From positions 9,461,482-9,525,481 of the forward strand of contig NC_060028.1 of assembly GCF_021134715.1 (NCBI RefSeq): 64,000 bases of DNA. The letters are read 5' to 3'. The notes beneath the pieces were generated by a model. The model saw nothing but the letters and a program-made list of their open reading frames with translations, did not search any database and had not been told where the DNA came from. Source of the stretch: Daphnia pulex. Taxonomy: Eukaryota; Arthropoda; Branchiopoda; Diplostraca; Daphniidae. Below are positions 7,642 through 44,767 of the stretch, piece after piece. Every line of letters begins with the position of its first letter. The stretch's first letter is position 1. Made by a program: the position numbers and the translations under genes.

Positions 7642-10445
<2,804 letters not shown>

Positions 10446-18469: not shown

Positions 18470-21007
18470 AAAGGGGGGAACTGGGAAACGATTACCAACA
18501 GCGGGGCGTGGTCTGTACAACAGCCAAATGTAATAAAAGATTTTCTTTTTCTCTTCTTTTTTCTTTTCTCCTTTACAAGTTTTTATTTTCCGTTGCTCGT
18601 TCGTGTCTGTCTGCCATCGGGGTGCTGCCTTTCTTCCCTCTTCGAATGAGAAATGGGTTTTAAGGGCCGTGGGATTACGATGGCGTTGTCTGGAATAGGA
18701 AGGAAGAGGGGCCGGGCTATAATATCCAAACCATCTTCTTATATATATATGGCTTCTTATGGACTACTCACAAAGAGAACCCCTGTGGCTTTTTTAAAAC
18801 AATCGTTGCGTTTCTTATCTAGTTTATACATCTCTAAAGGTGTTGGTTTGTCTTTACCCATCTTCCGAGAATAATCACCGAGGAAGCCATAAAATCGTTT
18901 TTTCCTTTTTTTTTAAATAAATTAGACGCCGATATTTGATACTTCCCATTTTTTTTTCAAGCATGCATAATAGGCTCGAATTTGATTGTCGGAGTAACGT
19001 GACACTTTTTTTTTAAGGTGGATGGCATCATAGAGCTGAATTGGTGAGGGGTTGCAGGGTTGAGGGGTGAGAAAAGAGGTGGTATTCAATGCATACATGA
19101 AAAGAATCCAATAAGTCCTAGTTTTGGAGTGGCCCTGCTATTAAATGTGGGAGGGAGAAACCTTCTATGGCTCATGCTCTCTCTTCTTTTCTTTGCGTTT
19201 CCCCCCTCCATATTTCAATGGTTGGCAACCAATTATTTACCAACGGCCAATCATAGGGCGACAGATGGGCCTGGAATACGTTGCCTAGCAACCTTGTCGA
19301 AACCAATTTTTTACGAAGGCAAACTTGTTTTCGTATTCTTTCAAATGGAAGACAAGTCTTGCAAATTTTCTACTTTCAAAAGAACATCATGAATCTTGCA
19401 TTTTTTCTGAATCTAATCAAATTGGGAAAATTCTAAAAATGGGTTTTCAAGAAGAGGCGATTTTCGAGAAAAATTGAAAATACCTAACTGGCAGCACCAT
19501 CTAGCGGTAGATATTACATTACTGTGGACGTGCATTTGTTTAACATATTAAAGATGTTCATTTGAGAACACTAATTTAAATTATCATAAAATAACGAAAG
19601 GAAATTAAAACAAGTTAATTTTAATGCTAGAATTCCCACCATTTGCAGCATGCATGGCAAAAATCAGTAATATTTTAACATGCAAGTAACATAAGGTTTT
19701 CACCAGTAACGGTAATCCAATTAAAGGATCTGTCACAATTTTACTTAAAAATAATTTTAAATAATGATGCATAAAACGACAAATTAAAACAAATCGGTAA
19801 CATACAGGTAAACTTAAAAATACTTAGAAAAGTAATTAACTTACATCTGGAAGCAGCATCCAATGTTAACACTTGTGGGTAGATGGCATTCAGTCAAAAT
19901 GGAGTCTGCTTCCCTTTGTTTGTGGATTCAAAGCTGCTTAACCGCACTCGCAATATGGACCAAATAATAAACAATCTAGGAAAAATAAAGACAGTATTGG
20001 TCTCACATCATTACGTCCCTTCTCAGTGAAAGACAAGAAATTAAGATAAGAGGTCTTTACCCAAAGTACAAGTGTTATCTACAAAATCAAATTATTAGGC
20101 CTACAATTTCTTTTAGTCGTCCACGCCAAATATCTAAATAAATAGCTTAAAGAACCGAAGGTCATCTTTTTTCTAATAAAAATAAATTAAAACGTCAGTC
20201 AAAACTCAATTAAAAAAAGATAACGAGGACGATTTCCGCTTCTGCTACTCAGCTACTGTAATCGAGCACAGCGATGTCTTCTCTAATTACAGATGGACCT
20301 CACTATTCTCAATATCATTCTAATGGCTTTTGAGATGAAAAAAAAATCCCCTTAGATAAAACTGTCTCATAACTCTACAACTCATTCATTAGACCGCGTT
20401 TTACATTTTGAAAACAGCCATTCCCGCTACTAAAATTCAAAAACAACAACTTCGGAATTCAAAATTAAATGATTCGCAGTTTCTTCGTTATCATGCTGTT
20501 GGGTGGTAAGGGTTGATAAGCTCGATTCTATTTGAATTGGAATTGTTGTATTATGTTCTTGAAAAAATTCTTTGAAAAAATGGCGGGGAAATCGGATCTC
20601 GAAACATCGATTTATTGTCGGTAATATATCGATCGTCAAGCGTCTACTGTCAAATACCCCAAGGGCTATTAAACACAGCAGGCCCCGCCTTGCAACGCGT
20701 CCTATTGGCTCATTTATTAAAAGGCGAAGAGAAAAAATACGAAACGTGGTTTGTTCCACCGGGTTTTTATTAATGAGCTCGAGTCGTCCCCTTCTCGCCT
20801 AGACGAATGAATAACTTAGTATAAATCGTGTCAGGAATGAAATTCTATCTGAAGCGTGACGACGAATACCGACTGCGATAACAGCATTCCATCACGTACT
20901 TCTTTTTTCCCCCAAAAATTTCACTCACTAAATTTGCATTAAATGGACATCCGATAGCGATATACTATTCTTGGTATGATCAGACATCGATCAGTTCTCC
21001 GTCAAAG
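18470..21007. other. Intergenic region between PHC and CNT-A
   Basis: AT-rich DNA without supported exons. It includes a CTCF-like match at 19496-19507, another ATTGGCTCAT near 20704, and two ATCGAT sites near 20606 and 20630. The final 200 bases should hold the CNT-A promoter and leader, but no TATA box stands out. Confidence 0.5.
19496..19507 (-). promoter_or_regulatory. CTCF-like motif
   Basis: On the minus strand this reads CCGCTAGATGGT, a match to CCASYAGRKGGC at 10 of 12 positions, differing from the 14990 site only in its last base. Confidence 0.25.
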
Positions 21008-23765
21008 ATGGATTTGGAATCTCCTCAAAATGAAAGTAAATCTGCTGGTGACTTCGTTGAAGGATTCTGGAGTTACGTTGGAAACTTTGCAGAGAAAAAC
21101 AGATTTAAAATTACAGTATTCTTGCGAATTTTTGCAGCAATCTCATACAATTGCTATTTCGTTGCGGCTGTCTACAATGCCCATCTCAAACAAATCGACA
21201 TTGATTGGTGTGGAGGTGTCGGGATGCTGATTATCCTCACTGTTATTGTCTACTGTGGCCTTTTCTACTACAAGGTTTTCAAACCTCATTGGGGCGATAG
21301 CGCATACTCCAGAGTGATCCTTCCCCTAACCCTTATCTTGGAACGATGCTGGAGCTATCGGTAAGCAAGCCTATCATTTATTGATCGACGAAAATGGACG
21401 CTTAATATCTCAAACGCTCATTTGCATACAACCAATGAGATTGGGGTACAAATAGCCGCCAGAGTGCGCAGAATCGCCCAGATTCCTCCTATCCCATTGC
21501 GCAGACTCAAAACTAGGCTTTTTTTAATCGTTTGTTGTTGATGTTATCCATTATAGTTGATCCATATCTTTTTTAATCTCCCTCATCTGGCACCAAGTCT
21601 TAATTACAATAGTTTGTAATTAAGAATCAGAATAGATTCCGAGAATCTTGCCCGAGGCCCCGAGCTAACGACGTAGAATGAAATGGAGGAATCTCGAGAA
21701 TGTCCATAAATCTAATTACACCCTGGTGCTAAATTACAACCTACATTTCCCCATTCCAATTTAAAATTAGTTTTGACTAAACCGATTCATCCATTGAAAC
21801 CTTTCTTTTCAAAAACTCAACTTGAAACGGATCAGGTTGATAAACTGACTAACAGATGGCGTTGAACGTGGATACTTTACTAAAATTATCTTACTAAAAA
21901 AATTTAAATTGAATCAAGATTTCTACGCTTACTGGTGATGGCTGGCGGGGTCGCGGGTTTCACTGTGGGGTTGGTATTGGACACGGCAGGTGACAGAGAT
22001 AGATTATACTCGCTCATCGGTCTGGCCGTCTTTCTCCTTTTTGGCTGGATCTTCTCGAAACATCCATCCCAAGTAAACCTCAACTTCCCATAGTTGCATA
22101 ATTAAATCAAACAAAATAATTCATTTGGTTTAGATAAAGTGGACACAAGTGATTTGGGGAATGATCTTACAGTTTCTCTTCGGTTTGATGGTTCTTCGCT
22201 GGAAAACCGGGCAGCAGGTTTTTGCCTGTCTCGGCGATCGCGTTTCCATCTTTTTGAAGTACACCGATGCAGGCTCAGGATTAGTCTATGGTCATTTAGT
22301 CACTGATCAAAATGCTTCCGGAATTCCGCTTGGCACCATTTTCGCCTTTAAAGTACCTACAGTGACAAAATAAAACTGAATTGCAACTGAATAATGTTAT
22401 TGTTAATTTTCAAGGCCTTGTCAGTCATTTTCTTATTCAGTTTCATGGTCAACATTCTTTACTATTACGGAGTCATGCAACTGATCGTACAGAAAGTCGG
22501 TTGGTTTCTTCAAGTATCAGTAGGAACCACTGCGACCGAATCAATCAACTGCGCTGCCAACATTTTTCTTGGACAAGTATACAATTCACACCAGATCTAC
22601 AAAACATTTGATTCTACAACGATTTGATGCCCTTAGACGGAAGCTCCTTTAGCTATCAAACCACTTTTACCGTTATTGACGAAATCGGAACTGCATACGG
22701 TTATGACGAGCGGCTTTGCTACAATTTCGGGTTTTGCTTTTACATATAAATACTGGTATAAACAAGTTGACATCTTCTAATATTTCTTAGGGTCAGTTTT
22801 GTCGGCATACATAAGCTTTGGAATAAGCGCTTCGCATTTGCTGAGTGCATCTGTGATGTCTGCACCAGCCGCTTTATCCTTTGCTAAATTGTTTTACCCC
22901 GAGACAGAAGAATCGCAAACTAAAGCAGAGGACATTAAAGTGCCAAAAGGGTCTACAAATTTACTGACTTTTTAACGCACCAAAAACTTGAGTCTAATCA
23001 AATTTTTACAACATTAATCATACAGGAAAGAGGCCAACGCTTTAGATGCAGCGGCACAAGGGGCTTCTAATGCAGTCTTTATGGTCATTAATATTTGCGC
23101 TAATCTAATCGCATTTCTAGCCTTTATTGCTTTTCTCAATGGAATCATTTCATGGATGGGAGGACTTTTAGGAGCACCTTATATTACATTTGAAGTAAGC
23201 CATTCATACCTTTTTTTAGGATGTTGAAAACAAGGGCTGTCTGCTTGTGTTAGTATCTAGTAGGGAAGTGTTTTATTCCACTGGCCTGGATAATGGGGAT
23301 TCCTGCAGAAGAGTGCGATCAAATAGGACATGTGGTAGCGCTAAAGACCATCGTCAACGAATTTGTTGCCTATAGGCAACTATCAGAATATATGGCTAAA
23401 GGACTAGTTTCGGTAAAAAATTTAGTTCAAATTGTTTACCTGTTTTCTATGTAGCAATTGGTTTCATGGCCATAACTAATTCTGCCAATAGAAACGATCG
23501 GAAACGATCGCTACCTTTGCGTTGTGTGGCTTCTCGAATCCAGGGTCAATAGGCATCCAAATAGCTGCCCTGGGGTCAATGGCTCCATCCAGACAAACCG
23601 ATTTGGCTCAAGTGGCTTTCCGAGCATTTGTTTCAGGAAGTATTGCTTGCTTCATGACAGCCTGTGTAGCTGGTAAATATATAAATTCTAAAAGTATGCA
23701 TTAACCATTCTTAAAACACGTGATTTAAAAAAACAGGAACGTTGATTCCATCTTCTTCGTTGTAA
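21008..23765 (+). CDS. Concentrative nucleoside transporter CNT-A (SLC28 family)
   Basis: Ten exons (21008-21360, 21919-22072, 22134-22352, 22415-22576, 22637-22730, 22791-22950, 23026-23194, 23254-23412, 23492-23672, 23737-23765) encode 559 residues of a multi-pass sodium- or proton-coupled nucleoside importer of the plasma membrane. Family marks are GQTEAPL across the exon 4/5 border, the CNT signature [12 protein letters not shown] in exon 8, and [12 protein letters not shown] in exon 9. The N-terminus is short (MDLESPQNES), about 70-80 residues less than in its three paralogues here, and the C-terminus is cut to GTLIPSSSL. It also reads ESINCAANIF where the others have ESMNAA(S/G)NIF next to the binding site. 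It is the most divergent copy and may differ in substrate choice. Its 3' end converges on the RacGAP-like gene. Confidence 0.93.
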
Positions 23766-30653: not shown

Positions 30654-31066
30654 TTAACCTCTGCAGCATCGTCCTCCGTTGCAGGTCTTGTGGATTAGAT
30701 TGCTTGAACACTGGGTACTGTTGCTGCAAGAGGCTGCAATCATACAAAGAAATAATTCACCCTTAATAACTAAATTCTTCTATTCCGCCTTAGAAAGTCA
30801 CGTAAAATGTTTAAAATTCTATAAATTTGTCGTAAACTCAGTGAACTTTTAACTTACTAAACCATCTGCAGTAGAATAAGAACTGATCACTCTCCTCGCC
30901 AGTTGCTTCATCATCAGAAGTGGGCGCAGAGTTAGTGTAGACGACAGCCATCACAGCCAAGATGCAGGCAAAGAGCTTATTTGCGCAAAAACAAATGAAT
31001 GTGAAATTACCCAATAAGTAAAACAAGAATGTAAAAGTATAAACTTACGAACAATTTCTGGAACAT
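30654..31066 (-). CDS. Small secreted cysteine-rich peptide, copy 1
   Basis: Three exons (31049-31066, 30858-30975, 30654-30733) encode 71 residues. Exon 1 holds just six codons (MFQKLF); exon 2 completes a hydrophobic signal peptide (FACILAVMAVVYTNS) and an acidic stretch; exon 3 carries most cysteines. The predicted mature part has six cysteines spaced C-x5-C-x5-C-x8-C-x4-CC, plus an NST glycosylation sequon between cysteines 2 and 3. Splice phases agree with the other two copies. The C-terminus is shorter and more basic (GGRCCRG). I do not recognise the family. Six cysteines and an acidic pro-region suggest a disulfide-stabilised extracellular peptide, either defensive or signalling. It is divergent to CNT-B. 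Confidence 0.82.
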
Positions 31067-31468
31067 TTTTAATTTGGTTTGAATTACTGGACGATTGGTG
31101 TGACTAACTGAGCGATATCCTTAGCCTTTTATACTGTTCGAAATCATTAGTGTCGTCCCCATTTACTGACTAATCAGGTTTGAACAGGTGGTTCCAGGGT
31201 ATGGCTAGACAAATTGAACAGTATGGAAGCTTATCCCAAATTCTAGTTTATGTTGACTTAAGTGTTATTAACTATGGCGCCCTATATTACTGACCAATGA
31301 GCTACATTACTTGTTTGCTATGAGTAACGTGTCCTAATTGAACACCTTTCTGCATCCCGGATCTAGTTCATGTTGACATAAGAAAATGTTCGTGTTTAAC
31401 CAATGGAGCTTATAAATGTTTATATAACTGATTTAATTAATTTTTTTTTTTTGCCACAGTGAGCTTCA
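31067..31468. other. Divergent upstream region between peptide 1 and CNT-B
   Basis: About 400 bp shared by the two divergent genes. On the peptide side a TATA box is clear. On the CNT-B side a T-run and AG at about 31441-31460 look like a splice acceptor just before the ATG at 31469, so CNT-B probably has a spliced leader. Confidence 0.5.
31125..31133 (-). promoter_or_regulatory. TATA box of peptide copy 1
   Basis: TATAAAAGG on the minus strand, about 60 bp upstream of the ATG at 31066. The same element sits at the same distance in copies 2 and 3, so the leaders should be short and unspliced. Confidence 0.7.
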
Positions 31469-34008
31469 ATGGAACTAGGAAAAGTGAATGGCGGGTATGA
31501 TATCCAAGTAGAAATAAACCTCCCGGAGGACCCGCAAGAATCGAATTACGGCACATTACAAATTTCACAGTTGAAGGCTCGAGAAGAAAGCGTCAATGGA
31601 AGTCTTTCAAAAAAGAAACGAAGGAAATCCAAGACATCCCCGACAGAACCCGAAGAAGGAACAGAAGAGGTGAATCCGTCATGTTCGTTCCTCGGCAACG
31701 CACTGGAAAAATTCTGGGCTCACTTGAGCGACTTTGCTGTTCAAAGAAAGTCGTTGGTTCGCTGGCTTGTCTATATTATCCTAGCCCTTCTTTACAACGC
31801 CTATTTCATAGCCAGCATTTACTATTCAATTCATAATGGCATCCCGATGGATTGGTGCAACGGTGTCGGCTTGCTCATCATTATTACTGTCATCACCTAC
31901 GTCAGCCTTTTCTACTTCCAAGTTGTGAAAAAGTTTTGGGGGAAATCCATTGATCGAGCCGTTTTAAAACCAATCAGGGCGCATTTTGATCGCGTTTGGA
32001 AATTCCGGTTAGTGAATAATTCTAATTATTATTCTCTTAATTGATAATTGATTGAGCTACATTTTTTGTGTATTTACAGATTGGTCCAGTATGGTGTTTA
32101 CTTGGTGATTGTCGCTGCCTTGATCACATTCCTTGTTATCGATACAAAGGACGAACGATATCGACTCGTCTCTTTCTTTGGTTTACTTGTTTTCGTGCTT
32201 CTCGGTTGGATTTTTTCCAAGCATCCGTCCAAAGTAAGCTAAATTACTTGTACATCTGTCATTAGATCACTGTTATTAATCTGAACGCTTTCAATCTGTT
32301 TACAGGTCAAGTGGAGTCATGTAACCTGGGGTGTGGGACTTCAGTTTATTTTCGGATTAATCGTCTTGCGATGGGAATTGGGTCGCCAGGTTATCCAGTG
32401 CCTCGGCGACAAAATCACCAAATTCCTCGATTATTCCAACGAAGGATCGGGCTTCGTTTATGGCTATTTGGTTACCGATAAAAACATGGCAGGAATCGTT
32501 CTCGGATCTGTTTTTGCCTTCAAGGTAATATTAAGCAGAAAATTATTGTGTCATTCGAAATGCTAATGAGCTTCATTAATGTGTAGATACTTTCAGTCAT
32601 CTTCTTCTTCAGCTTCTTCGTTAGCATCCTTTACTACTATGGCATTATGCAGTGGGTCGTCCAGAAAATCGGATGGCTGTTGCAAATATCCATCGGTACC
32701 ACGGCCGCCGAGTCTATGAATGCAGCTGGGAATATCTTTTTAGGCCAAGTAAAGTCAAATAATTTATTCTCATGCTGATTGATATGATGGCTAACTGTTA
32801 TTTACAGACCGAGGCCCCTTTGTTAATTAGACCCCTTCTTCCTAAAATGACCAAGTCTGAGCTTCACGCCGTAATGACGGGTGGATTCGCCACCATAGCA
32901 GGTTTGTAAGCTGTACATAATTTATGTTGTTGAATTAATTGATTGAATAAAAATTGGAATTTCAGGCGGAGTTCTGGCAGCATTCATCAGTTTTGGTATC
33001 AGTGCATCCCATTTGTTATCGGCATCCGTCATGTCTGCACCGGCCGCTCTAGCCTTTTCCAAACTCTTTTATCCGGAATCGGAGAAATCACAAACTAAAG
33101 CTGGAGACGTGAAAATTCCTAAAGGGTAATCCTTCCGCTTTTCAGTCTGTTGTATCGAGGCACAATGGAATCGTTTTATTGCGTGTTTCTACAGGACGGA
33201 ATCCAACGCTCTCGATGCAGCCGCCCAAGGAGCAGCTAATGCCGTCTTTTTGGTACTGAATATCATCGCCAATTTAATCGCCTTTTTAGCTTTCATCGCC
33301 TTCCTCAATGGAATCATCTCCTGGTTTGGTGGTCTTCTAGGAGCTCCATACGTCACGTTTGAAGTAAGAAATCTATTGTCCATCCAATGACTAATCTAAT
33401 TCAAGTAAATTGATTTGCAACAGTACATCATGGGCAAGATATTCATCCCTGTTGCTTGGTTGATGGGCGTGCCCGCAGCCGAGTGTGATCTAGTGGCCAA
33501 TCTTGTGGCTCTCAAGACTATCGTCAATGAGTTTGCAGCTTACAGCAAGCTATCGGAATACGTGGCACAAGGAATCATTTCGGTATATCAATAGTGAATC
33601 CTTCTTGTTGCAGTGTTATGCTATATGGCTAAAATATTTTGGCTTCCTTGGAACGTGTGTAGAAACGAGCTGAAACCATCGCTACCTACGCTCTTTGTGG
33701 CTTCTCCAATCCCGGGTCGATTGGTACCCAGATAGCCGCTCTTTCCACCATGGCACCCGAACGGCAGAGCGACTTGGCCCAGGTGGCCTTTCGAGCATTT
33801 GTAGCGGGCAGTGCAGCCTGCTTTATGACTGCGTGTATCGCAGGTAAGAGAGATTTCGTTAAGAGCTACTGTTTTTATTAGATTACATATATGTCTTTAT
33901 TATTGGGAAATAGGCACTCTAATATCATCCGTCTCTGACACACCAATATCCACTACCTTTGCACCTTCAACTTTTTCTTTCACTCCCAATATGACAGCCG
34001 TGTTCTAA
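31469..34008 (+). CDS. Concentrative nucleoside transporter CNT-B (SLC28 family)
   Basis: Ten exons (31469-32007, 32080-32233, 32306-32524, 32587-32748, 32808-32901, 32966-33125, 33195-33363, 33424-33582, 33663-33843, 33914-34008) encode 643 residues. A cytosolic N-terminus of about 100 residues, with a basic KKKRRKS patch, precedes the membrane core. CNT marks are [11 protein letters not shown] at the exon 4/5 join, [12 protein letters not shown] (Asn534) in exon 8 and [12 protein letters not shown] in exon 9. The protein should import nucleosides against their gradient using sodium or protons. Exons 2-9 measure 154, 219, 162, 94, 160, 169, 159 and 181 nt, identical in all four paralogues. 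The C-terminus is a Thr/Ser-rich tail with an NMT sequon. Its substrate preference cannot be read from sequence alone. Confidence 0.95.
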
Positions 34009-34319
34009 AGTTGTTGTTTGTTTTTTTTTTAATTCCTATCATAGTTTTAACGTTTTCAACGACAGCATTGTTTAAATTATGTGTCATCATCTATCGCATC
34101 ATCATAATATTAGTTATCCTTTCGTGCGGGACTATAATAGAACTGTATTTTCCGAAACCAATCAGAGATTTGTGCCGTCAAACACATAAAGTTCATTTAA
34201 AAAAAAAGAACAAAATTAAAATGGGCAATTTCGTGCAATGGAGTATGAATTCAAAATGAATCCATAGGGTCTTATGTATCCTGGGACTCGATTTTCAGTT
34301 AGTTAGTTGTTTTCTTGGT
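34009..34319. other. CNT-B 3' untranslated region, facing peptide 2
   Basis: AT-rich sequence with an ATTAAA near 34214. CNT-B transcripts ending at the AATAAA at 34324-34329 would overlap the 3' end of the oppositely oriented peptide 2 gene. Confidence 0.5.
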
Positions 34320-34694
34320 TTAAAATAAACAGCACTGTTTATTTCCAAAGAGATTTGCGCGGCAAGTCTTGTAGATAAGATTGCTGGAACAGTCGGTGCT
34401 GTTGGTGCATGAAGCTGCGGATCATTAAAAAACAAATTGTATTATGTAATTGATAAATAAGATTTAGGCACGCTCCCGTAGTAAACTGTTAAAGCTTACA
34501 AAATGGTTTGCAGAAAGTCTGGTCAGTTTCTTCACCCTCTTCAGCAGTGGGCAGAGAGTTGGTGTAGACGATGGCCATCATAGCCAAGAGAACGGCGAAG
34601 AGCTAAATTAATGGACACAGACAATAGAATAAGAATAATCGTTGAATTACTTTGCACCGAGCATTAGTCTACTTACGAAAAATTTCTGGTACAT
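34320..34694 (-). CDS. Small secreted cysteine-rich peptide, copy 2
   Basis: Three exons (34677-34694, 34500-34602, 34320-34414) encode 71 residues. The six-codon first exon (MYQKFF) leads into a hydrophobic signal segment (LFAVLLAMMAIVYTNS), then an acidic piece (PTAEEGEETDQTF) and six cysteines spaced C-x5-C-x5-C-x8-C-x9-CC. The NST sequon between cysteines 2 and 3 is kept. Codon phases at both introns match copies 1 and 3. It ends CCLF just at the stop. The acidic part is 5 residues shorter than in copy 1 and nearly identical to copy 3. Family unrecognised; secretion is well supported, function is not. Confidence 0.87.
34324..34329 (+). terminator. Candidate AATAAA for CNT-B, inside the peptide 2 final codons
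   Basis: AATAAA on plus about 315 bp after the CNT-B stop. It lies within the last codons of the minus-strand peptide 2 gene, so the two mRNAs may overlap tail to tail. Confidence 0.35.
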
Positions 34695-34754
34695 TTTTTG
34701 TTATGTTTGCAAGGACTGCTAGATGAAGAATGATATTTTCATGAAAAAGAACGG

Positions 34755-34763
34755 CTTTTTATA
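34755..34763 (-). promoter_or_regulatory. TATA box of peptide copy 2
   Basis: TATAAAAAG on minus, about 61 bp upstream of the ATG at 34694, followed by CCG as in copy 3. Confidence 0.7.
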
Positions 34764-34861
34764 CAAGTTTTTCTCCATGCCTATGCTCTGATAACACCAA
34801 CGAATATTAGTCTATCATTGTACATTTACAGTCCTTGAACGAATTATTCGATTGTTCAGAT

Positions 34862-34891
34862 GGTTGACAGCTGCTGTATCCACAGCTGAAT
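34862..34891 (+). repeat. Double-CAGCTG element, left copy
   Basis: GGTTGACAGCTG and CCACAGCTGAAT lie 6 bases apart. A near copy in the same orientation lies at 39400-39433, on the other side of the ionotropic receptor gene. Confidence 0.5.
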
Positions 34892-35044
34892 ATTCTAATG
34901 ATAAATATGGCTTCATATCAAAATAAGTCTAGTCATAACTAATCGTAACACGACCGCTGATTGGTCGTCATTTGTCGATAGCCAGTCGTGTGTGTGTCGT
35001 GAGACTATAGAGAGAATAGAATTGTCAATAAACACATATCTCAT

Positions 35045-35050
35045 TTTATT
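35045..35050 (-). terminator. Polyadenylation signal of the ionotropic receptor
   Basis: AATAAA on minus, about 55 bp beyond the stop codon at 35103. Confidence 0.6.
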
Positions 35051-35102
35051 TATGTCCCCTCTCTCACTCCGAACTGGGCATATGTTAATTTGTGGTTATT
35101 TT

Positions 35103-38007
35103 TTAAAAACAAATTCGACAAAGAGAGCGAAAGAAATAGGGAGTAAAACACTCGAATAAGAAGATGAGAGAAGCTATTCCGGATCCGATAGCTAAAATGA
35201 TGAAAGCGCCTTGTAAATCCGCCAGGCTGAGACTTTTGGGCCCCGTATCGGATTGCTTCACTTTTCCGCATTTACCACCGGTCGGTGCCCCATAAAGTTT
35301 CTTCCAATAAATATCAAGACCTGCTTCCATCATTTGTAAAATTCTATCAAAAATAGGGAATAAATGTCGTAAATGTCCAATCAGCTTTATTTAGAGACCG
35401 TTTTATACTTTTCGTCCATGAATGGTTTAAGAGCACTATTTTTCGAGAAGGCGAATGCCACATTGACTTTAAAGAATTCTTGCTGGGCAATGCTGAGACG
35501 ACAGGTGCCCGTTCGAAGATAATCGTCGTAGAGCGATGACTCTAAATTTGATTTACCCTGAATTAAAACGATAAATGGATTCTAGTTTTCTTGAAAATAA
35601 AATGAATCAATGATGTATACCGCGAGATAAGCATAACCGCCGTTAGCGACGAGATTGATACCATCTAAATGAACATCAATTAAAGCTCCACGCTGCTGCT
35701 TCAATAAGCCATCTGTTAATATAATCAGGGAATATTTAATAGCAATCAGCTTTATCGTTTAAATGGCTTAACCTCCGATAGTTTTGTAAATTCCGGCTGT
35801 AGAATCCTGTAGAGAAAATTGAATTAAAGTGATAAGTGAATTCTTGTTCAGCTTACATAAACGACACATACGAGAAAGAGCGAATCCAGAGCGGTTCCTC
35901 GTAGGGCAACCCACTTGAGGTGGGATTCAGGTAATTCTTCCAGTCGATTGATGACGGGCAACAGTTTGGGAAATCGCAGAAAGGACATGAGAATTCCCAC
36001 GTAAGCACTTGCGAAAACGACAGCACTCAAACACCAAATGGCTGCGAGTAATTGAAGTGAACACCGCGAAGACAACTTTCGTCCAGCTATACAGCAAGGA
36101 GAAATGTTAAAATTTTGACAGCACAGAAATTAATTAGTGCAGCAGCTACTCACACTGGCCAATAAGAACTCCAAGGATGAACAAATATTGGTCCCCCAAT
36201 GTCAGACATTTTTCCCGGTAGTGAATCAAATAAAACTTTGAATGTTGCCAAAGAATGACGGGTAGAATAGTCGCAAACAGCATCAAGGTAAGCCAAGTCT
36301 GTTTTAACACGACATTATTTTTCATTTCATTCCAATTCAAGTAATGTATGCGATTGACTAACCTCCAAACGGAATGGCTTGGTGCAAGCTGATAAACGGT
36401 TCTCTTCCGCCGGTGGCGGGATCAGAATTGCGTTGCCATCCTCGTAGAATGCGACGGAAAAGTCAACCGCCTTCGACCGGGAATGTGTGACTGAAAATGG
36501 GCCAAGGCCAATATCAACCCGCTGTACAGATCGATAAAGATTAATTTAATTTTCAAATGCAATTTCAGTTTGTATTACTTTGGCCACGACCATTCCAATC
36601 ATGCCGTTCCAACTGCCATCGGGCAACTCTTTCCCAAAGGCATTATCGCTGGGTAAAATGATCTCATAACTGTCAATTAACAAATACTAATAAATATGTC
36701 AATAAATCAGGTGAATGATAACCTACGTGAAATTGTACTGCTGTTGGAGTATGCGAACGATTTCGTAGCAATATCCTTTGTATCCCACGACAGTTCCATT
36801 TGGATCACGGTCGAAAATCACAAAAGGTGGTTCCTTCATTTTAAAATCAGATATGATGCAATGAAACGCCCACGCATTAAAATTTATAGTAAAGACGTTG
36901 TTGTATTACTTCCAGTAAAGTCAGTCGCAACATTTTTCCGTCAAATTCTTTATGCCAATCGATCCTTTTCGATTCGAAAACATCGCCGACTGCCGAGCGT
37001 CCAGATTGGCTCCATTGAAAATCATCTAATTGAGCGCATTCTTGCAGTTCTCTAATCACGCTGGTTCACATGTTTTGGAACCAATTAAAGGAAAGCCATC
37101 ATCTATAACAAGGCCATTCAAGCAAAGTCATATCGGCGCATCTTGCCTGAACAACGGCGATCCATTGTCTAGCAGGGTCCTCCGAGTTCCATTGTCCACC
37201 GACGACAAGCAGATTCGCTCTTCCAGCCATTTGATTATTGCGAAACTGCCACAGAAATCTCGGCCGGTTTCCTTAATATAGGGAAAAATCGCAATTTCAA
37301 AATGTTATGCGTACATGTATTGATGAAAAGAGCTCGGTCCAAATTGATGTTGTCTAAAATGACTTGCGTTGAGACGGTAAAGTTGCAAACGTTCGGCTTT
37401 TAATCCAGGCAGTGATGGAGGGCAGAATAAGAATTCCAGACGGAGCACCGGTGTCATTGTCGACGACACAATGGCCTCAATGACGTCAGCGACCCGGCAT
37501 TGAGTTGCCGCTAGCACCACACCCTCGAATTGATCCATTTGAGCAGCTAATAAAGAGAGAAAATCGATCGCCAAATTCGTGTGCATCAGCCGACAACAAT
37601 GAGAGCGAATACTAAGGTCTTTTACCAATCTGTTGGGCCTCGAACAGCAAGACCTCGCTCGACGGTATTTCGATCGTCGTGAAATTGATCATCGACGCTG
37701 GGCAATGAACGAGGCTACCAGCGTCGTCGAGCAGAGCAGTTATCAATAGCTCAATGTTGGGTCGTCGGAGTAGTAGGTCGTCATCGTGAACGAAAGCTGC
37801 AGATGAGGAAAAATGATTAATGGGAGACGGAACTGGATAGGGTTGGTTCAAAACGCTATAGCAAATAAATGTATTTCCCATATTGTAGCTAAAAGAAAAA
37901 TATAAGAAACAGGATTATATTATACCGAGTTTGAAGCAATAGATATCCATCACGCCGCTGGCGATGAGACAGAACATCACCAGCGCACGACATAATGATG
38001 GATGCAT
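35103..38007 (-). CDS. Ionotropic receptor (divergent ionotropic glutamate receptor family)
   Basis: Fourteen exons give about 631 residues: 37926-38007, 37626-37796, 37364-37546, 37200-37271, 36910-37049, 36727-36833, 36579-36669, 36363-36521, 36154-36298, 35857-36086, 35773-35806, 35621-35712, 35409-35557, 35103-35343. The ligand-binding S1 half starts near residue 217 (EPPFVIFDRD, GYKGYCYEIV, SWNGMIGMV). The arginine that contacts ligand in glutamate receptors is kept (SVTHSRSKAVDFS). M1 begins near 336, a pore loop and M3 follow (FASAYVGILMSFL), then S2 and a final helix (LQGAFIILAIGSGIASL). The acidic ligand residue after YAFL in glutamate receptors is replaced (YAYLAGKS), as is common in IRs. 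Such proteins are chemosensory cation channels. The joins of exons 3-5 use weaker splice sites and are less certain. Confidence 0.87.
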
Positions 38008-39380
38008 AAGATAAATAAATATAGCTCCTATATAGGAAACAGAACTAAGATGGATCCAGTCGGAGGAATAGACGGTGTCGAACTAATGAAGACTTGTTGT
38101 TCAGTGTCATCGGTTATTTTAAAACACAGCAGAAAAATGGCGGAAATGCGCTGGATGGAAAGACTGTAACTTCTTTGCACATGTGTGTACACCGATGAAA
38201 AGGGAAAACGTCAACTCATCTTCTTTTATATTTATAAGAATATTATTTGCAGAACGTCTGCTCCATTTCCCATGTAATTGCATATTTCTATGTTTTTTTT
38301 TTTTCTTTTTCTTTTGCCGGAGACGTGAAATCAATAAAGGCTGTGGACACTATACTATATAAGTGACGTAACATATAGTACTGATGAGGGGGACTGAACC
38401 CTCAAAAGGGGGAGAGTTTTGCTCCATCGGCGGTCCCCATCAAAATAATTCCCAGGGGGTAATCCATTATTTACTAGAGTCCCATTGTAAAGAATACAGA
38501 AAATATGTACCCCTTGCAGACATAGGACAGACGAGGGCTCTGTAAGAGGGGGATCGTTATTGTGGGTATATCCAGAATATATAGACCCAGCAAACGCTCT
38601 TTGACGTATAGAGGGGAAAAAATTGCTTTCAACATAGTCGTTCATTTTTTATTTGCCATTTTACTCTTATGGCCCATACTTTCTAAGAAAAAAATATCGC
38701 ATCCTGCTATTTTGAAACAATTAGATTCAAACAAGAATGGCTATATCATTTGTGATTCTAAATATTTGGTTGTAATGATGGATCGAGTTGGGGAAAAAAT
38801 GCGTTTGATTAATAAACACGAAAAATATCTTTCTATCGATCGAATAAGATTTTTAGATTGTGTCGCACATATATGGGGGGGGGGGGAAATGAAGATCCGG
38901 TACAATCCTGGATTCCCGGAATGTTTTTTTATTATTTAAAGAAGTTCATTCATCAAAATCAAGGAATAGTTTCCAAGCTCGTGTTCCAAGTTCCAATCCT
39001 TTTGGCCTTATTTATTTTCAGTTTGCCTCTATAAACGTGCGCCATATTTACTCATGTGATTATATAGACCCGTTGCGTGTTCAACTAATGCCAACCCGAC
39101 ACTAGATCGATACTGGGGATGACAGGGTATGAATACGAAGCTCAAATGTGGCACCACATCCAAGTCCGGGATTCAAGCCAGACGTCCGGGAATGCCAAGT
39201 GTGTTACTGACATTATTGCGCGTCCGTGATATACTCTTAATGCAGAAAGCGTTAAGAATTCTTTTCTAGCAATATCTCTTCCGGATTAACATGGAAAGAT
39301 CAAGTTTAATTATCCTTTCTGTATTGTCGCTGTTAATAACCCAGAAACTATTATAGTCAACATTGACGAGCAACTATAAC

Positions 39381-39386
39381 TTTATT
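39381..39386 (-). terminator. Polyadenylation signal of CNT-C
   Basis: AATAAA on minus about 245 bp past the CNT-C stop codon. Confidence 0.55.
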
Positions 39387-39399
39387 TACAGTTCAAAAC

Positions 39400-39433
39400 G
39401 GTTGGCAGCTGTCCTATAGACCCACAGCTGAAT
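39400..39433 (+). repeat. Double-CAGCTG element, right copy
   Basis: GGTTGGCAGCTG and CCCACAGCTGAAT match the 34862-34891 element apart from one substitution in the first half, with a longer spacer. Together they flank the receptor gene as direct repeats. Confidence 0.45.
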
Positions 39434-39627
39434 CTACTGTCGAGTGAGCCGGATATTGTATTATTGGCGTAAAGCCCACACACATGCTATCAAAGTAAAT
39501 ACAACAGGCCTGCCAACTACGAAAATACTAATAATTAGACACGAGCCGAAAAATACCAGTTTTAGCTCGTTCAAAATAGGATTCAATTTGTCTTCAAGGG
39601 GTGTTGTACAGCATATACGATAGGTGG

Positions 39628-42600
39628 CTAGAAATAGGAGCCCATTAAGGTAGTCATGTTGGGCGCATAAGTAGTCGATGGGGGCACCACCTCAGAGACG
39701 GTCGAAATCAGAGTACCTGTGGTGTCCACAAATTTACTTGAATCAATTAATGGGACGAATGATGATGTATTATTCTAAAGTGGAATAACCAACCAGCAAC
39801 GCAAGCGTTCATAAAATTGGCCATGCTCCCGGCAATAAATGCGCGGAAGGCAACTTTGGCAAAGTCGGATTGTCGATCCGGCGCCATCGCGGAGAGCGTT
39901 CCTATTTGAGCACCGATAGAGCCGGGATTAGCATATCCACACAAGGCGAATGTAGCGATGGTTTCAGCTCGTTTCTGTCACAGTCGTTGTCCCAACAAGA
40001 CCACAATTAATTTTGACGTATTATACAATTTGTGAAACAGTTCCTACCGATATAACTCCCTGTGCAATGTATTCGGACAGTTTGCCGTAAGCGGCAAACT
40101 CATTAACGATCGTCTTAATAGCCACCAAATTGGCGACGAGATCACATTCAGATGGCGGCACTCCCATCAGGAAAGCTACTGGGATGAAGATTTTACTCAA
40201 AATCCACTTTAAAAAAAAATGAAATAGTAATTACATTCCTTGTCAGGTTTCAACAATATACAAAAGAAATACTTCGAATGTTATATAAGGCGCTCCCAGG
40301 AGATTGCCGTACCAGGAAATGACTCCATTGAGGAAGGCGATGAATGCTAAAAAGGCGATTAAATTAGCGATTACGTGAGCGACCATTAGCACGGCATTTG
40401 CAGCTCCTTGGGCTGCAGCATCCAAAGCGTTGGCTTCGGTTCTATTTTGGTTTAAAATCAGTTGACATTGTTATAAAAATTTACAGAATCAATGTTGGTA
40501 ATCTAACCCTTTAGGAACTTGAATATCTCCGGCCTTTGTTTGAGATTTCTCCGTTTCAGGATAAAGCAATTTGGCTATGGCCAGAGAAGCCGGAGCGGCC
40601 ATCACGGATGCGCTGAGTAACTGGGAGGCACTAATGCCGAATCCAGTATACGCCGCCAAATCAGATCCTGCGGTTCCGGGTGCGGTTCATCACAATATAT
40701 TGTATTAAGACAACTATAACGTTGAATAACAAAACCTGCAATGGTGGCAAATCCTGCAGTGAAAACAGCGTGAATTTCCGATTTAGTCATTTGAGAAAGA
40801 AACGGCTTGATAAGTAACGGAGCTTCAGTCTGTCAATTTAAATTTAATACAGTTTGATTTAATTTAAATGTCTGTGCTCGATGGAATACCTGTCCTAAAA
40901 AGATGTTGGACGCAGCGTTCATCGACTCGGCGGCCGTTGTGCCGACTGAAACTTGCAGAAGCCATCCGAGTTTCTGGACTGTCCATTGCATAGCGCCATA
41001 ATAGTAGAGGAGGTTAATCAGAAAACTGAAAAAATAGATGACCGACAAAATCTAATAATAAGCCAATAAATCATACATAAGACGAGATTAATTAATTTGT
41101 AAAAATAAAAAGCAGTCGTACTTACTCTGAAAGCAAATATGGTGCCCAAAGCTATTCCAGCAGTGTTTTCATCATTAGCCAGATAGCCAAAGACAAACTC
41201 TGATCCGGCAACTGAATAATCCAGCAGAAGAGAGAATTTATTACCCAGACACTCGAAAGCTCTTCTACCAAAATCCCATCGTAAAACGATTAAGCCAAAA
41301 ATCAACTGCAAGGCTATGCCCCAAGACACATGTCTCCATTTCACCTGTTGAGAGAAGAAAAAAGAAAATTTGCCGAGTGAACGCAATGTGTAAAACAATT
41401 TCAAGTATAAAATTACCCTGGATGGATATTTAGAAAAGATCCAGCCGAGCAGCAGGAAGACGAGTAGACCACCGAAGGATTGCAATCTCACTCGTTCGTC
41501 AGCCGTGTCGATAATTAGAAAAATCAGCAATCCCAAAATAAGACAGAGGTAAAATCCATATCGAGCTAATCTGAATCAATTTTTAAATAATCAGAATTAA
41601 ATTTCTGTACTCAACAAAGTATTGATTCCCTCTTGGCTCGATTTTTAATCTATCGATATCTTAACTTTTAAAAGCATGGCTAATTGAAGATTAGTGTCGT
41701 CTGCTTTCCATTTGATTAAAACTTTCGAAAAAGAGACGAAGTTAAAATAATAAAGAAAAGGAAACGATATTTTTTTGGAAAACGTACGTGGCCATACAAA
41801 AAACAGTACTTAACTAATAAAATTACAAAAATTTCATTGCCATGTTAACTCTGGTGTCGCTGCTCTCCATGCTCTCCACGACTCGACCATGCTATTTGGC
41901 AGGTAATTAAAACTTAAGGAATTAAGAATACAAATATAATTGTTATGGTATAGTTTAACTAGAAGAGAAACCTTTTCCAAATGTGTCAAATATAAGTTCC
42001 TGATTAACATTTATCATGTAAGCCCCCTGTCAATGGGGGCAGTTTGTTTGCACTGTAACCCGGTCTCTCCTTTGTGCAGTTTTGAGGCCTGCTGAGCCAG
42101 CCATCACATAACATGCTATGCAAGTTATGCTTGTGCTGATATTGACAGTGTCAACAATCAGCAACAACCTATCCATTATAGCTAGGATAATGATTTGTGC
42201 TACTTTTATTCCTGCGGCCTGCTAGTTATTTTAAAGATGACTTGTAGAAATGCAGTGTACATATGGAAACCTTGAATTCTCCCATTTATCAAAAATTAAA
42301 GTTTACCCACTTTCTCATTTTCAACTTTTCCTGACTTGTTGTTTCTGCTAATATTTTTGTAACCCATTTTTTTTTATTTAGAAAAACAGCATCCTGTCCA
42401 TTGGAGAAACTACTGCAGTCGATCAAGTTATGGATCTCTTCTTTCCCTTTCTTCAATTTCCTCGTGTACACCCATGTGAGTGTGGGTGTATTCACGAGGA
42501 TCCCCTTTTCCTTATCCCGACTGGTGGATTCAACTTCTCTGCGGATGGATGGAGCACGTGAGGATGCCTGGCCGTTTTTCCCAGGCTTAAAGGTAGGACA

Positions 42601-43430
42601 CAATTTATCTATCTTCTTCTTTTTGACTATTTGTGGGGGGCGTTGATTATGAATCGTTACAAAGTATGGAGTACGATTATTCCTGAGCTAGGTGGTTGAG
42701 TAGAATTCTTTTTCTTTTTGTTGACTCAGCAGCGTTTTTTAAACATCTCTTTTATAGAACGACTACAGATCAGGCTTGTTTTTGTATCTCCCAACTTTGT
42801 TTGTGGATAAACACTCTTATTCGAAAATATTCTAGCTTTCTAAAAGCAAAGTGCATCTAGAAAATATTTTGATTAAGATGCCGACCCCTCCTTGTTGAAA
42901 TTTTGTCGAATTGAAACTGACCTGTACTTCCAAACTTTTTCAAAAGCATTTCCTATTGGTTTGAGAACGTTTTGATGAATGGGTTCACCCCAGAACTTTT
43001 TGACAACTTGAAAATAGAAGAGGCCAAAGTAAATGATGCTCGTCAGGACAATGAGGAAACCCACTCCGTCGCACCAATCCATCGGGATTCCATTGTGAAT
43101 GGAGTAGTAGAGGCTGGCGATGAAGTAGGCATTGTAAAGAACGGCCAGGAGAATGTAGAGACTACTGAGAGCGACCGTTGATCTTTGCGAGAAGAATTCC
43201 CCCGTCGCTTTCCAAAATGTTTCCAGCGCGTTGCCAATGAACTCACAGGATTGGTCGATTGCTTTGTCATCACCATCGCCCTCATCATTCGACTGCGAGT
43301 CAATGTTTGATAACGAATCATCCTTTGCGGTTGGAGTTGACAAATCCTCAGTGCCGATCGATTTCTTTTGATCCGAGCCCTCACTTTCAGTTCCGACATG
43401 TTTGCTGGCTTTATCGATTTCCCGCTCCAT
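39628..43430 (-). CDS. Concentrative nucleoside transporter CNT-C (SLC28 family)
   Basis: Ten exons (42922-43430, 41417-41570, 41126-41344, 40890-41051, 40736-40829, 40508-40667, 40273-40441, 40048-40206, 39794-39974, 39628-39716) encode 631 residues. I chose the ATG at 43430 because MEREID aligns with MERGID of CNT-D; an in-frame ATG lies further up at 43517. The N-terminal cytosolic part is acidic ([10 protein letters not shown]). Core marks are GQTEAP at the exon 4/5 join, [12 protein letters not shown] in exon 8 and [12 protein letters not shown] in exon 9. It should be a plasma-membrane nucleoside importer. Intron 1 is unusually long (1.35 kb) and holds a strong hairpin. Several exons are almost identical to CNT-D. 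Confidence 0.94.
42460..42499. repeat. Strong short hairpin in CNT-C intron 1
   Basis: CCTCGTGTACACCC and GGGTGTATTCACGAGG form a 14-pair stem with one 2-base bulge and a 10-base loop (42474-42483). The stem is short for a microRNA precursor and does not extend well outside. Confidence 0.6.
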
Positions 43431-44320
43431 TTGATTGATCCTTACTGACAGAAATGGGGACTTGTTACAAATCAATTTTTTATCTTGACATATATTTATA
43501 GTATATGAGCTTTGCATTACCTATCATGTGAACCGTGACTACTCGCAACAGTTTTTAGGACACAAGTCATTAAAAGCACTTGAAATCTGTACTACGGCTG
43601 ATTGAATAGAATGTAATACTAATATTAAACCTCGTATGTCTATTAGTCCTAAACTACGTGTTGAGAAATAGCGCCCCAAAAATTGTTTCCTTAAATTAAT
43701 TAAGCGCACAAATAATAGTAATCAAATTAAAATTTAAAAAAACCATGGGTCAAAGTCGTCTAAGAAATTGAGTGAAAAAATGTCATCGTTTAAAGATGAT
43801 TACCTTTGCGTTAGGGGAAATGGTATTAACGTCAGCACCGGTAACCGTCTCGGGCCACTCTGTTGTCAAGTCGCGGATTATCTTAAGGATCGATCCCGAA
43901 ATTAACCGATCGAGAATAGGAAGACGATATCAGGAATCAAATGGCCAAACGACAATCTAGAAATTAATACAGCACTTTGTCACAGAGTCTTATCAGATAC
44001 GATCAGATACCATAACTAAAAGCTTAATCTTGCTGACTATGTCATGCATTTTCATTTTGTTCTTGTCGATTTGCTTGGAAACAATAAATCAGGGTAAACC
44101 TTAATTATATGCTTAAGAATGGATTTTTATTTTCTGATATAAACGACAAGTTTTTAAATTGAGATAGGTGTATGAGACCTAACTAAAGATTTGACTTGTC
44201 TTAGGCATAGATGGAAAGAAAACAAAAGTAGAAAGGTCGGTAAACGTGATCTTGCTCTTAAATCTTGGGTCGTCGTGATGCCAGTAATAAGTTAAATAAC
44301 ATCTCAGGACAATGAATCGT
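43431..44320. other. CNT-C upstream region and peptide 3 3' end
   Basis: No coding signal. It holds the CNT-C promoter side and, near 44126-44131, an AATAAA on minus that could end peptide 3 transcripts about 190 bp after their stop codon. Confidence 0.5.
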
Positions 44321-44697
44321 TTACAAGCAGCACTGCAGACTGCCAACGAGATTGGTGCGGCAGGTCTTGTAGATGAGGTTGCTGGCACAGTCGGTGCTGT
44401 TGACGCAGGTAGCTGTAGATCACATCCAACAAAATACATTTGATAAAATATTACAGGTTTAAAAGTATTGTTATAAATTCATTTTAAACAATCGACTTAC
44501 AGAAGAGTTTGCAGAAAGTTTGGTCAACGGCTTCACCCTCTTCAGCAGTGGGCATGGAGTTGGTGAAGACGATGGCCATCATGGCGATGATAACGGCGAA
44601 CATCTGGAATAGACATTTTAATCATAACCACAATCAGTCACAGCCAAAAATTTAGGCTCCATTACTAAAAAAGACTTACAAAGAATTTCTGGAACAT
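44321..44697 (-). CDS. Small secreted cysteine-rich peptide, copy 3
   Basis: Three exons (44680-44697, 44501-44603, 44321-44412) encode 70 residues. Exon 1 is MFQKFF; exon 2 gives the signal segment (MFAVIIAMMAIVFTNS), acidic PTAEEGEAVDQTF and the first cysteine; exon 3 gives the rest, spaced C-x5-C-x5-C-x8-C-x9-CC and ending CCL. The NST sequon is kept, as is SNLIYKTCR, which copy 2 shares exactly. Exon 2 is 103 nt in copies 2 and 3. Selection for a secreted disulfide peptide is clear from preserved phases, cysteines and signal sequence. Function is unknown to me; an antimicrobial or signalling role is a guess. Confidence 0.87.
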
Positions 44698-44758: not shown

Positions 44759-44767
44759 CTTTATATA
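44759..44767 (-). promoter_or_regulatory. TATA box of peptide copy 3
   Basis: TATATAAAG on minus, about 62 bp upstream of the ATG at 44697, in the same context (followed by CCGAC) as copy 2. Confidence 0.7.

What the first reader, a model, noticed from the sequence alone, without database searches (positions are those of the whole stretch)
30654..44697. A three-member family of tiny secreted six-cysteine peptides hidden among nucleoside transporter genes
Three genes (30654-31066, 34320-34694, 44321-44697, all minus) share an 18-nt first coding exon, a signal peptide, an acidic stretch, an NST sequon and a C-x5-C-x5-C-x8-C-x4/9-CC framework. Each is only 70-71 codons over three exons, so simple gene finding would miss them. 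Conserved phases and cysteines with divergent loops indicate functional selection. I do not recognise the family. Roles in defence or signalling are possible but unproven.
Basis: partly seen in the sequence, partly recalled or inferred. Interest (0 to 1): 0.88.

Follow-up and report, generated by a model that had tools for sequence, protein, structure and literature searches.

The report
Water-flea family of six-cysteine secreted peptides
A crustacean genome, probably that of the water flea Daphnia pulex, carries a one-chromosome family of tiny, apparently secreted peptides whose six cysteines are spaced much as in animal beta-defensins; they look like real, selected genes of unknown job, possibly defence.

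Summary
They are not a three-member family: searches of the genome gave 12 loci on one chromosome, 11 with intact frames and one pseudogene. All 11 share an 18-nt first coding exon, a phase-0 and a phase-1 intron, a hydrophobic leader, an acidic segment and C-x5-C-x5-C-x8-C-x4/9-CC; 10 have a TATA box about 70 nt before the ATG. Selection is clear between old copies: two genes 8.5 Mb apart encode the same 35-residue cysteine region through 15 synonymous codon differences. The NST sequon is lost in two of 11; only S-T is invariant. Seven of 11 fit a published beta-defensin framework completely; four miss one loop. But loops are no closer to panusin or a beta-defensin 1 chain than shuffled loops, and Pfam and PDB give no significant match, so I do not file it as a beta-defensin. 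Best guess: secreted three-disulfide peptides, most likely defence effectors (about 0.4), a signalling ligand close behind. No transcript, fold or activity was tested.

The parts
31049..31066 (-). gene A (win1) coding exon 1, 18 nt (MFQKLF), donor GTAAGT, phase 0
30858..30975 (-). gene A exon 2: rest of hydrophobic leader, acidic segment (net -6), Cys1; phase-1 donor
30654..30733 (-). gene A exon 3: Cys2-Cys6, ends CCRG-stop; short form 5-5-8-4-0
31128..31133 (-). gene A TATA box, 67 nt before the ATG
34677..34694 (-). gene B (win2) coding exon 1 (MYQKFF)
34500..34602 (-). gene B exon 2: leader, acidic segment (net -5), Cys1
34320..34414 (-). gene B exon 3: Cys2-Cys6, long form 5-5-8-9-0; cysteine region identical over 35 residues to that of copy D at C12:1.034 Mb (B has one extra C-terminal residue)
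34758..34763 (-). gene B TATA box, 69 nt before the ATG
44680..44697 (-). gene C (win3) coding exon 1 (MFQKFF)
44501..44603 (-). gene C exon 2: leader, acidic segment (net -4), Cys1
44321..44412 (-). gene C exon 3: Cys2-Cys6, long form 5-5-8-9-0
44760..44765 (-). gene C TATA box, 70 nt before the ATG

Best explanation
A single-chromosome family of small secreted disulfide peptides: 11 intact genes plus one pseudogene. Each precursor has a hydrophobic leader, an acidic segment (net -3 to -6) and a basic 31-36-residue domain (net +2 to +4) with six cysteines. The leader is presumably removed on secretion. The six cysteines presumably form three disulfides in the beta-defensin arrangement (1-5, 2-4, 3-6). 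The acidic segment would mask or solubilise the basic domain. The most likely job is a host-defence effector acting at the gut, body surface or in haemolymph, built like a beta-defensin but not shown to descend from one. SHOWN: gene models with splice signals, copy number, framework, charge split, purifying selection between old copies. INFERRED: transcription, secretion, disulfide pairing, fold, processing, defence role.
For: Eleven intact loci with the same phases and cysteine order. Splice sites GT-AG in 11 of 11; TATA box 67-76 nt before the ATG in 10 of 11. Exons more alike than introns, e.g. B vs D: exons 14/18, 86/104, 78/95; introns 56/97, 51/91. dN/dS 0.05-0.58 in the 33 of 55 pairs with finite dS above 0.5; synonymous excess at p<0.001 in 6 of 7 pairs tested. 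Divergent member L keeps 6/6 cysteines but only 7-9 of 25-26 other residues of that region, in four comparisons. Charge split in 11 of 11. Seven of 11 fit every interval of the beta-defensin consensus in PMC9604261 Table 3; given a terminal CC and 22 loop residues, 10 of 1330 spacings (0.8%) would. The phase-1 intron near the start of the Cys region recalls beta- and big-defensin genes (passages of PMC7203481). hhalign against a three-row panusin/beta-defensin alignment gives P 0.004 over 15 columns around C4-CC, but probability only 8%.
Against: Loops are no more like panusin or the PDB beta-defensin 1 chain 2plz than Cys-fixed shuffles (12 comparisons, 6 members by 2 targets, p 0.12-0.64), while panusin against 2plz gives p=0.003. 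Pfam Defensin_beta gives 6 sub-cut-off places in the genome, none at a family locus. No promoter motif enriched: two kappaB patterns 1 of 7 promoters each (p 0.12, 0.29), GATA 2 of 7 against 3.3 in shuffles. No K/R in 10 of 11 acidic segments, so no classical cleavage site to free a basic peptide; uncleaved, 10 of 11 chains are net -2 (sums). Full identity of the B and D cysteine regions fits a conserved ligand as well as a defence peptide. The intron lies after Cys1. The 0.8% was computed after the match was seen.
Confidence: 0.4

Rival explanations
1. Extracellular signalling ligands (cytokine- or hormone-like): a conserved knot is kept by a receptor, and paralogues differ in where or when they are made.
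For: Genes B and D encode the same 35 residues through 15 synonymous codon differences, which fits receptor constraint. Six of 11 (A, E, F, G, H, J) end CC(R/K)G, a possible amidation substrate (inference). Small genes, TATA box in 10 of 11.
Against: No dibasic site in the acidic segment of any of 11. Copy number and recent near-identical duplicates are unusual for a hormone (general knowledge). No match to the crab trissin framework C-x2-C-x3-C-x3-C-x7-CC (sequence from PMC8449533): shuffle p 0.61-0.92 in 6 comparisons, hhalign p 0.46. Other hormone families were not compared.
Confidence: 0.3
2. Structural or inhibitory secreted peptides (cuticle, gut lining, ephippium or egg coat, protease inhibition) without direct signalling or antimicrobial action.
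For: Strong constraint on a small disulfide scaffold; uncleaved chains net -2 in 10 of 11. In Daphnia similoides a transcript labelled by Pfam 'Defensin propeptide' is among the top 30 up in sexual females (PMC5037449, section 26), but no link to this family could be made: none of the 9 precursors scanned hit that Pfam model.
Against: No Pfam inhibitor or cuticle family matches the 9 of 11 precursors scanned.
Confidence: 0.22
3. Chance open frames or decayed gene remnants rather than working genes.
For: No transcript data could be examined. One of 12 loci is clearly broken. Among the five youngest copies the counts do not show constraint: in 3 of 10 pairs there are 0 synonymous and 2-5 nonsynonymous changes.
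Against: Conserved frames, splice sites, TATA boxes and strong synonymous excess between old copies.
Confidence: 0.03

Closest known systems
Vertebrate beta-defensins (framework CX5-7CX3-5CX8-11CX4-6CC, bonds 1-5, 2-4, 3-6; PMC9604261 Table 3)
   Same: Six cysteines with terminal CC; all loop lengths in range in 7 of 11 members; leader plus basic domain; phase-1 intron near the Cys region.
   Different: C4-C5 loop of 9 in 4 of 11; loop residues unrelated to the one chain compared; no Gly two residues before C4 in 11 of 11 (that this is a beta-defensin trait is recalled); extra 18-nt exon; intron after Cys1; acidic segment without cleavage site.
Panusin (PaD) of the spiny lobster Panulirus argus
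   Same: A crustacean beta-defensin-type array (C-x6-C-x4-C-x9-C-x5-CC, sequence in PMC10301333); net +4; C-terminal amide versus a possible amidation end in six members.
   Different: All four loops differ by one residue from the short form (6-4-9-5 against 5-5-8-4); no residue similarity above Cys-fixed shuffles (p 0.20-0.64 in 6 comparisons).
Big defensins (horseshoe crab, molluscs)
   Same: Beta-defensin-type domain; mostly three-exon genes with a phase-1 intron; a phase-0 extra intron in horseshoe crabs (PMC7203481 passages).
   Different: No hydrophobic N-terminal domain between leader and cysteines; precursor only 68-72 residues; sequences were not compared here.
Arthropod CS-alpha-beta defensins (database sequences reported, uncharacterised, in D. 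pulex by PMC5116183, passage)
   Same: Small, six cysteines.
   Different: Needs C-x3-C and C-x-C (PMC9604261 Table 3); the family has C-x5-C and CC.
Aphid BCR peptides (PMC9604261)
   Same: Lineage-restricted cysteine-rich secreted peptides; BCR4 has 1-5, 2-4, 3-6 bonding.
   Different: None of the four BCR frameworks of Table 3 fits.

Membership tests
Beta-defensin | Cysteine order and spacing CX5-7CX3-5CX8-11CX4-6CC | tested here: inconclusive
   7 of 11 members fit all intervals; 4 of 11 have a 9-residue C4-C5 loop
Beta-defensin | Match to the Pfam profile PF00711 | tested here: not met
   6 sub-cut-off places in the genome, none a family locus (exon by exon); 0 of 9 spliced precursors scanned hit it. 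Panusin itself scores below the cut-off (E 0.1), so the test is weak
Beta-defensin | Loop residues more similar than expected at fixed cysteines | tested here: not met
   p 0.12-0.64 in 12 comparisons; positive control p 0.003
Beta-defensin | Disulfides 1-5, 2-4, 3-6 and three-stranded sheet | not testable with these tools
Beta-defensin / big defensin | Phase-1 intron at the 5' end of the Cys-rich exon | tested here: inconclusive
   phase 1 in 11 of 11, but after Cys1; definition from PMC7203481
Beta-defensin | Antimicrobial activity | not testable with these tools
   bench assay needed
CS-alpha-beta defensin | C-x3-C and C-x-C motifs | tested here: not met
   C2-C3 loop is 5 and C5-C6 adjacent in 11 of 11
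Trissin | C-x2-C-x3-C-x3-C-x7-CC | tested here: not met
   spacing differs in 11 of 11; loops p 0.61-0.92 in 6 comparisons
Panusin family | Residue similarity to PaD beyond cysteines | tested here: not met
   p 0.20-0.64 in 6 comparisons; hhalign probability 8%, P 0.004 over 15 columns, a weak result the other way

The most novel reading that the evidence does not exclude
These are the beta-defensin-type effectors of a water flea, in a species where a genome survey could not recover antimicrobial peptides: a third ecdysozoan origin or survival of the beta-defensin array besides horseshoe-crab big defensins and decapod panusins, found only by splicing three tiny exons.
Probability: 0.28. Interest if true: 0.72.

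Novelty: new variant of a known kind. Interest (0 to 1): 0.52.

Why it matters
The 2009 survey of the D. [quoted passage not shown] pulex (PMC5116183 passage). [quoted passage not shown] A family that comes close to that array in a model crustacean would make the question 'which peptides does Daphnia use against microbes?' directly testable. Even if the job is signalling, peptides kept identical across synonymously diverged paralogues point to a conserved, unstudied ligand.

Tried and rejected
Profile searches: Pfam gives only a sub-cut-off AtDEF-like hit over leader, acidic stretch and first cysteines for 2 of 3 window peptides (E 0.0047 and 0.012) and nothing for 6 further members; F and J were not scanned. 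NCBIfam gives sub-cut-off noise for 3 of 4. PDB sequence search: 0 hits in three runs and, in the fourth, a 12-residue match to two peptidoglycan-recognition-protein sequences at E 1.3, read as chance.

Homology to panusin: first suggested by a recalled motif (note) that the printed sequence showed to be wrong; tested, not supported.

Immune promoter idea: seven patterns (two kappaB, GATA, Dsx, E-box, MRE, HRE) over up to 600 nt upstream of 7 representatives against mononucleotide shuffles: none enriched (p 0.12-1.0; the MRE-like pattern in 3 of 7, p 0.16).

Relatives elsewhere: none confirmed in prokaryote genome contigs (36 pattern stretches) or viral contigs (93). No crustacean collection was on hand, so absence says nothing about other species. 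Literature: four peptide fragments occur in 0 papers; I saw no description of such a Daphnia family in the titles and abstract starts listed, or in the passages opened. That covers open-licence PubMed Central papers only.

Tree: 11 precursors give no starred branch, 7 of 8 inner branches open (only B+C drawn, at 86/90), so branching order is not claimed.

Full report
WHAT IS THERE. The genes at 30654-31066, 34320-34694 and 44321-44697 (minus strand) splice into open precursors of 71, 71 and 70 residues. Each has an 18-nt first coding exon followed by GTAAGT, a phase-0 intron of 73-76 nt, a second exon with the rest of the leader, an acidic segment and Cys1, a phase-1 intron of 85-124 nt, and a third exon with Cys2-Cys6. 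A TATA box stands 67-70 nt before each ATG.

WHOSE GENOME. The window is on contig C12 of a 133,188,837-base, 13-contig assembly. D. pulex is given as 133.2 Mb, with KAP4 as its assembly (passages of PMC12926508); the same paper's abstract start puts the related D. obtusa on 12 chromosomes (listing). So D. pulex is likely; this rests on size, not on a name in the data.

FAMILY SIZE. DNA, exon and joined-protein queries and an exon-1 pattern give 12 loci, all on C12: 1.034 (D), 1.037 (E), 1.150 (F), 1.189 (G), 1.905 (H), 2.356 (I), 2.369 (J), 7.293 (L), 7.331 (K), 9.492 (A), 9.496 (B) and 9.506 (C) Mb. Eleven have intact frames. Locus I is a pseudogene: exon 1 lacks two bases and exon 3 is cut short beside an inverted repeat. 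The exon-1 pattern has 10 exact hits, all members, plus 2 two-mismatch hits elsewhere, with 4 hits for the reversed control; L was found through exon 3 (E 0.08) and then read out in full. The last two joined queries gave one off-chromosome hit each, E 0.14 and 1.5, read as chance and not followed up. The tool warns that its counts are lower bounds.

TWO FORMS. Short (5-5-8-4-0): A in the window, five near-identical copies E, F, G, H, J at 1.0-2.4 Mb, and the divergent L; 7 of 11. Long (5-5-8-9-0): B and C in the window, D and K; 4 of 11. The near-identical copies lie in longer duplicated stretches, for example 95.6% over 3.4 kb for F and G.

SELECTION. Pairwise dN/dS (Nei-Gojobori, own script) is 0.05-0.58 in the 33 of 55 pairs with finite dS above 0.5; 12 pairs are saturated at synonymous sites, and 10 are recent pairs with dS of at most 0.05. 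The excess of synonymous change has p<0.001 in 6 of 7 pairs tested and p=0.085 for A-B. B and D, 8.5 Mb apart, agree in 35 of 35 residues compared from the residue before Cys1, with 15 synonymous codon differences. In the recent group the numbers are small and do not show constraint: three of 10 pairs have no synonymous and 2-5 nonsynonymous changes, and one has a ratio of 1.27. L keeps 6 of 6 cysteines and only 7-9 of 25-26 other residues in the cysteine region, in comparisons with four members.

PRECURSOR BUILD. Acidic segment net -3 to -6, cysteine domain net +2 to +4, in 11 of 11; no K or R in the acidic segment in 10 of 11. So the leader-acid-basic plan of many defence peptides is there, but no classical site to release the basic part; uncleaved, 10 of 11 chains are net -2 and L is +1. 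The segment borders are my own cut, not a predictor's. The N of N-S-T is replaced in K (A-S-T) and L (S-S-T), while S-T is invariant in 11 of 11, so the sequon is probably incidental.

WHAT IT RESEMBLES. A published table gives beta-defensins CX5-7CX3-5CX8-11CX4-6CC (PMC9604261, section 27 read). Seven of 11 members fit every interval; four fail one loop. With 22 loop residues and a terminal CC, 10 of 1330 spacings would fit (0.8%); this was computed after the resemblance was seen and is not a corrected probability. The phase-1 intron near the Cys region also recalls beta- and big-defensin genes (PMC7203481 passages), though here it lies behind Cys1. Against descent: with cysteines fixed, loop similarity to panusin and to the PDB beta-defensin 1 chain 2plz is at shuffle level in 12 of 12 comparisons (p 0.12-0.64), while those two against each other give p=0.003 and three within-family comparisons p 0.0005-0.0015. 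hhalign against an alignment of panusin and two beta-defensin 1 chain fragments gives 8% probability with P 0.004 over 15 columns; against trissin P is 0.46. Pfam and PDB give nothing significant. So 'works like a beta-defensin' is possible; 'is a beta-defensin' is not shown.

FUNCTION. Defence is my first choice for three reasons: the leader-acid-basic build, the copy number, and a published failure to recover antimicrobial peptides in D. pulex (PMC2685406 abstract passage; a later survey, with Daphnia among its species, searched for the main Drosophila AMP domains and found only Defensin2, in Ixodes and Mesobuthus, PMC4833078 passages). Against it: no kappaB enrichment, and identity across old paralogues, which suits a receptor ligand. 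A D. magna-Pasteuria transcriptome paper has one passage on antimicrobial peptides, about another host (PMC4551569).

NEIGHBOURS. Four copies of a concentrative nucleoside transporter lie in the window: two with PF01773, the others by similarity. No transporter exon was found in the sequence held around the other copies (roughly 1.5-5 kb each side), so no functional link is suggested.

LIMITS. One genome, paralogues only, no transcripts, no crustacean collection, no fold. Mature ends, secretion and disulfides are inferred.

Noticed in passing
window 42040-42880: A dispersed repeat of about 840 bp: 43 matches from the 40 scored of 701 first-look candidates, on 10 of the 13 contigs, the long ones at 71-77% identity besides the window itself. 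It holds a strong hairpin (z -5.6) and reaches no Rfam cut-off (two sub-cut-off matches). Related stretches lie beside three short-form copies (E, H, J).
   Followed up: partly
C12:2.3558-2.3562 Mb (locus L007): A pseudogene copy: exon 1 lacks two bases and exon 3 ends at a short inverted repeat, as if broken by a small rearrangement or insertion.
   Followed up: partly
window about 20882-22352 (+), 31463-32524 (+), 43520-41018 (-), 48076-46828 (-): Four clustered, diverged concentrative nucleoside transporter copies; three of them are 43-83% identical to the fourth in one N-terminal segment; PF01773 matched two of the ORFs given.
   Followed up: partly
window 8281-8712 (-): Adaptor complex medium subunit exon (PF00928, E 3.3e-42).
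   Followed up: no
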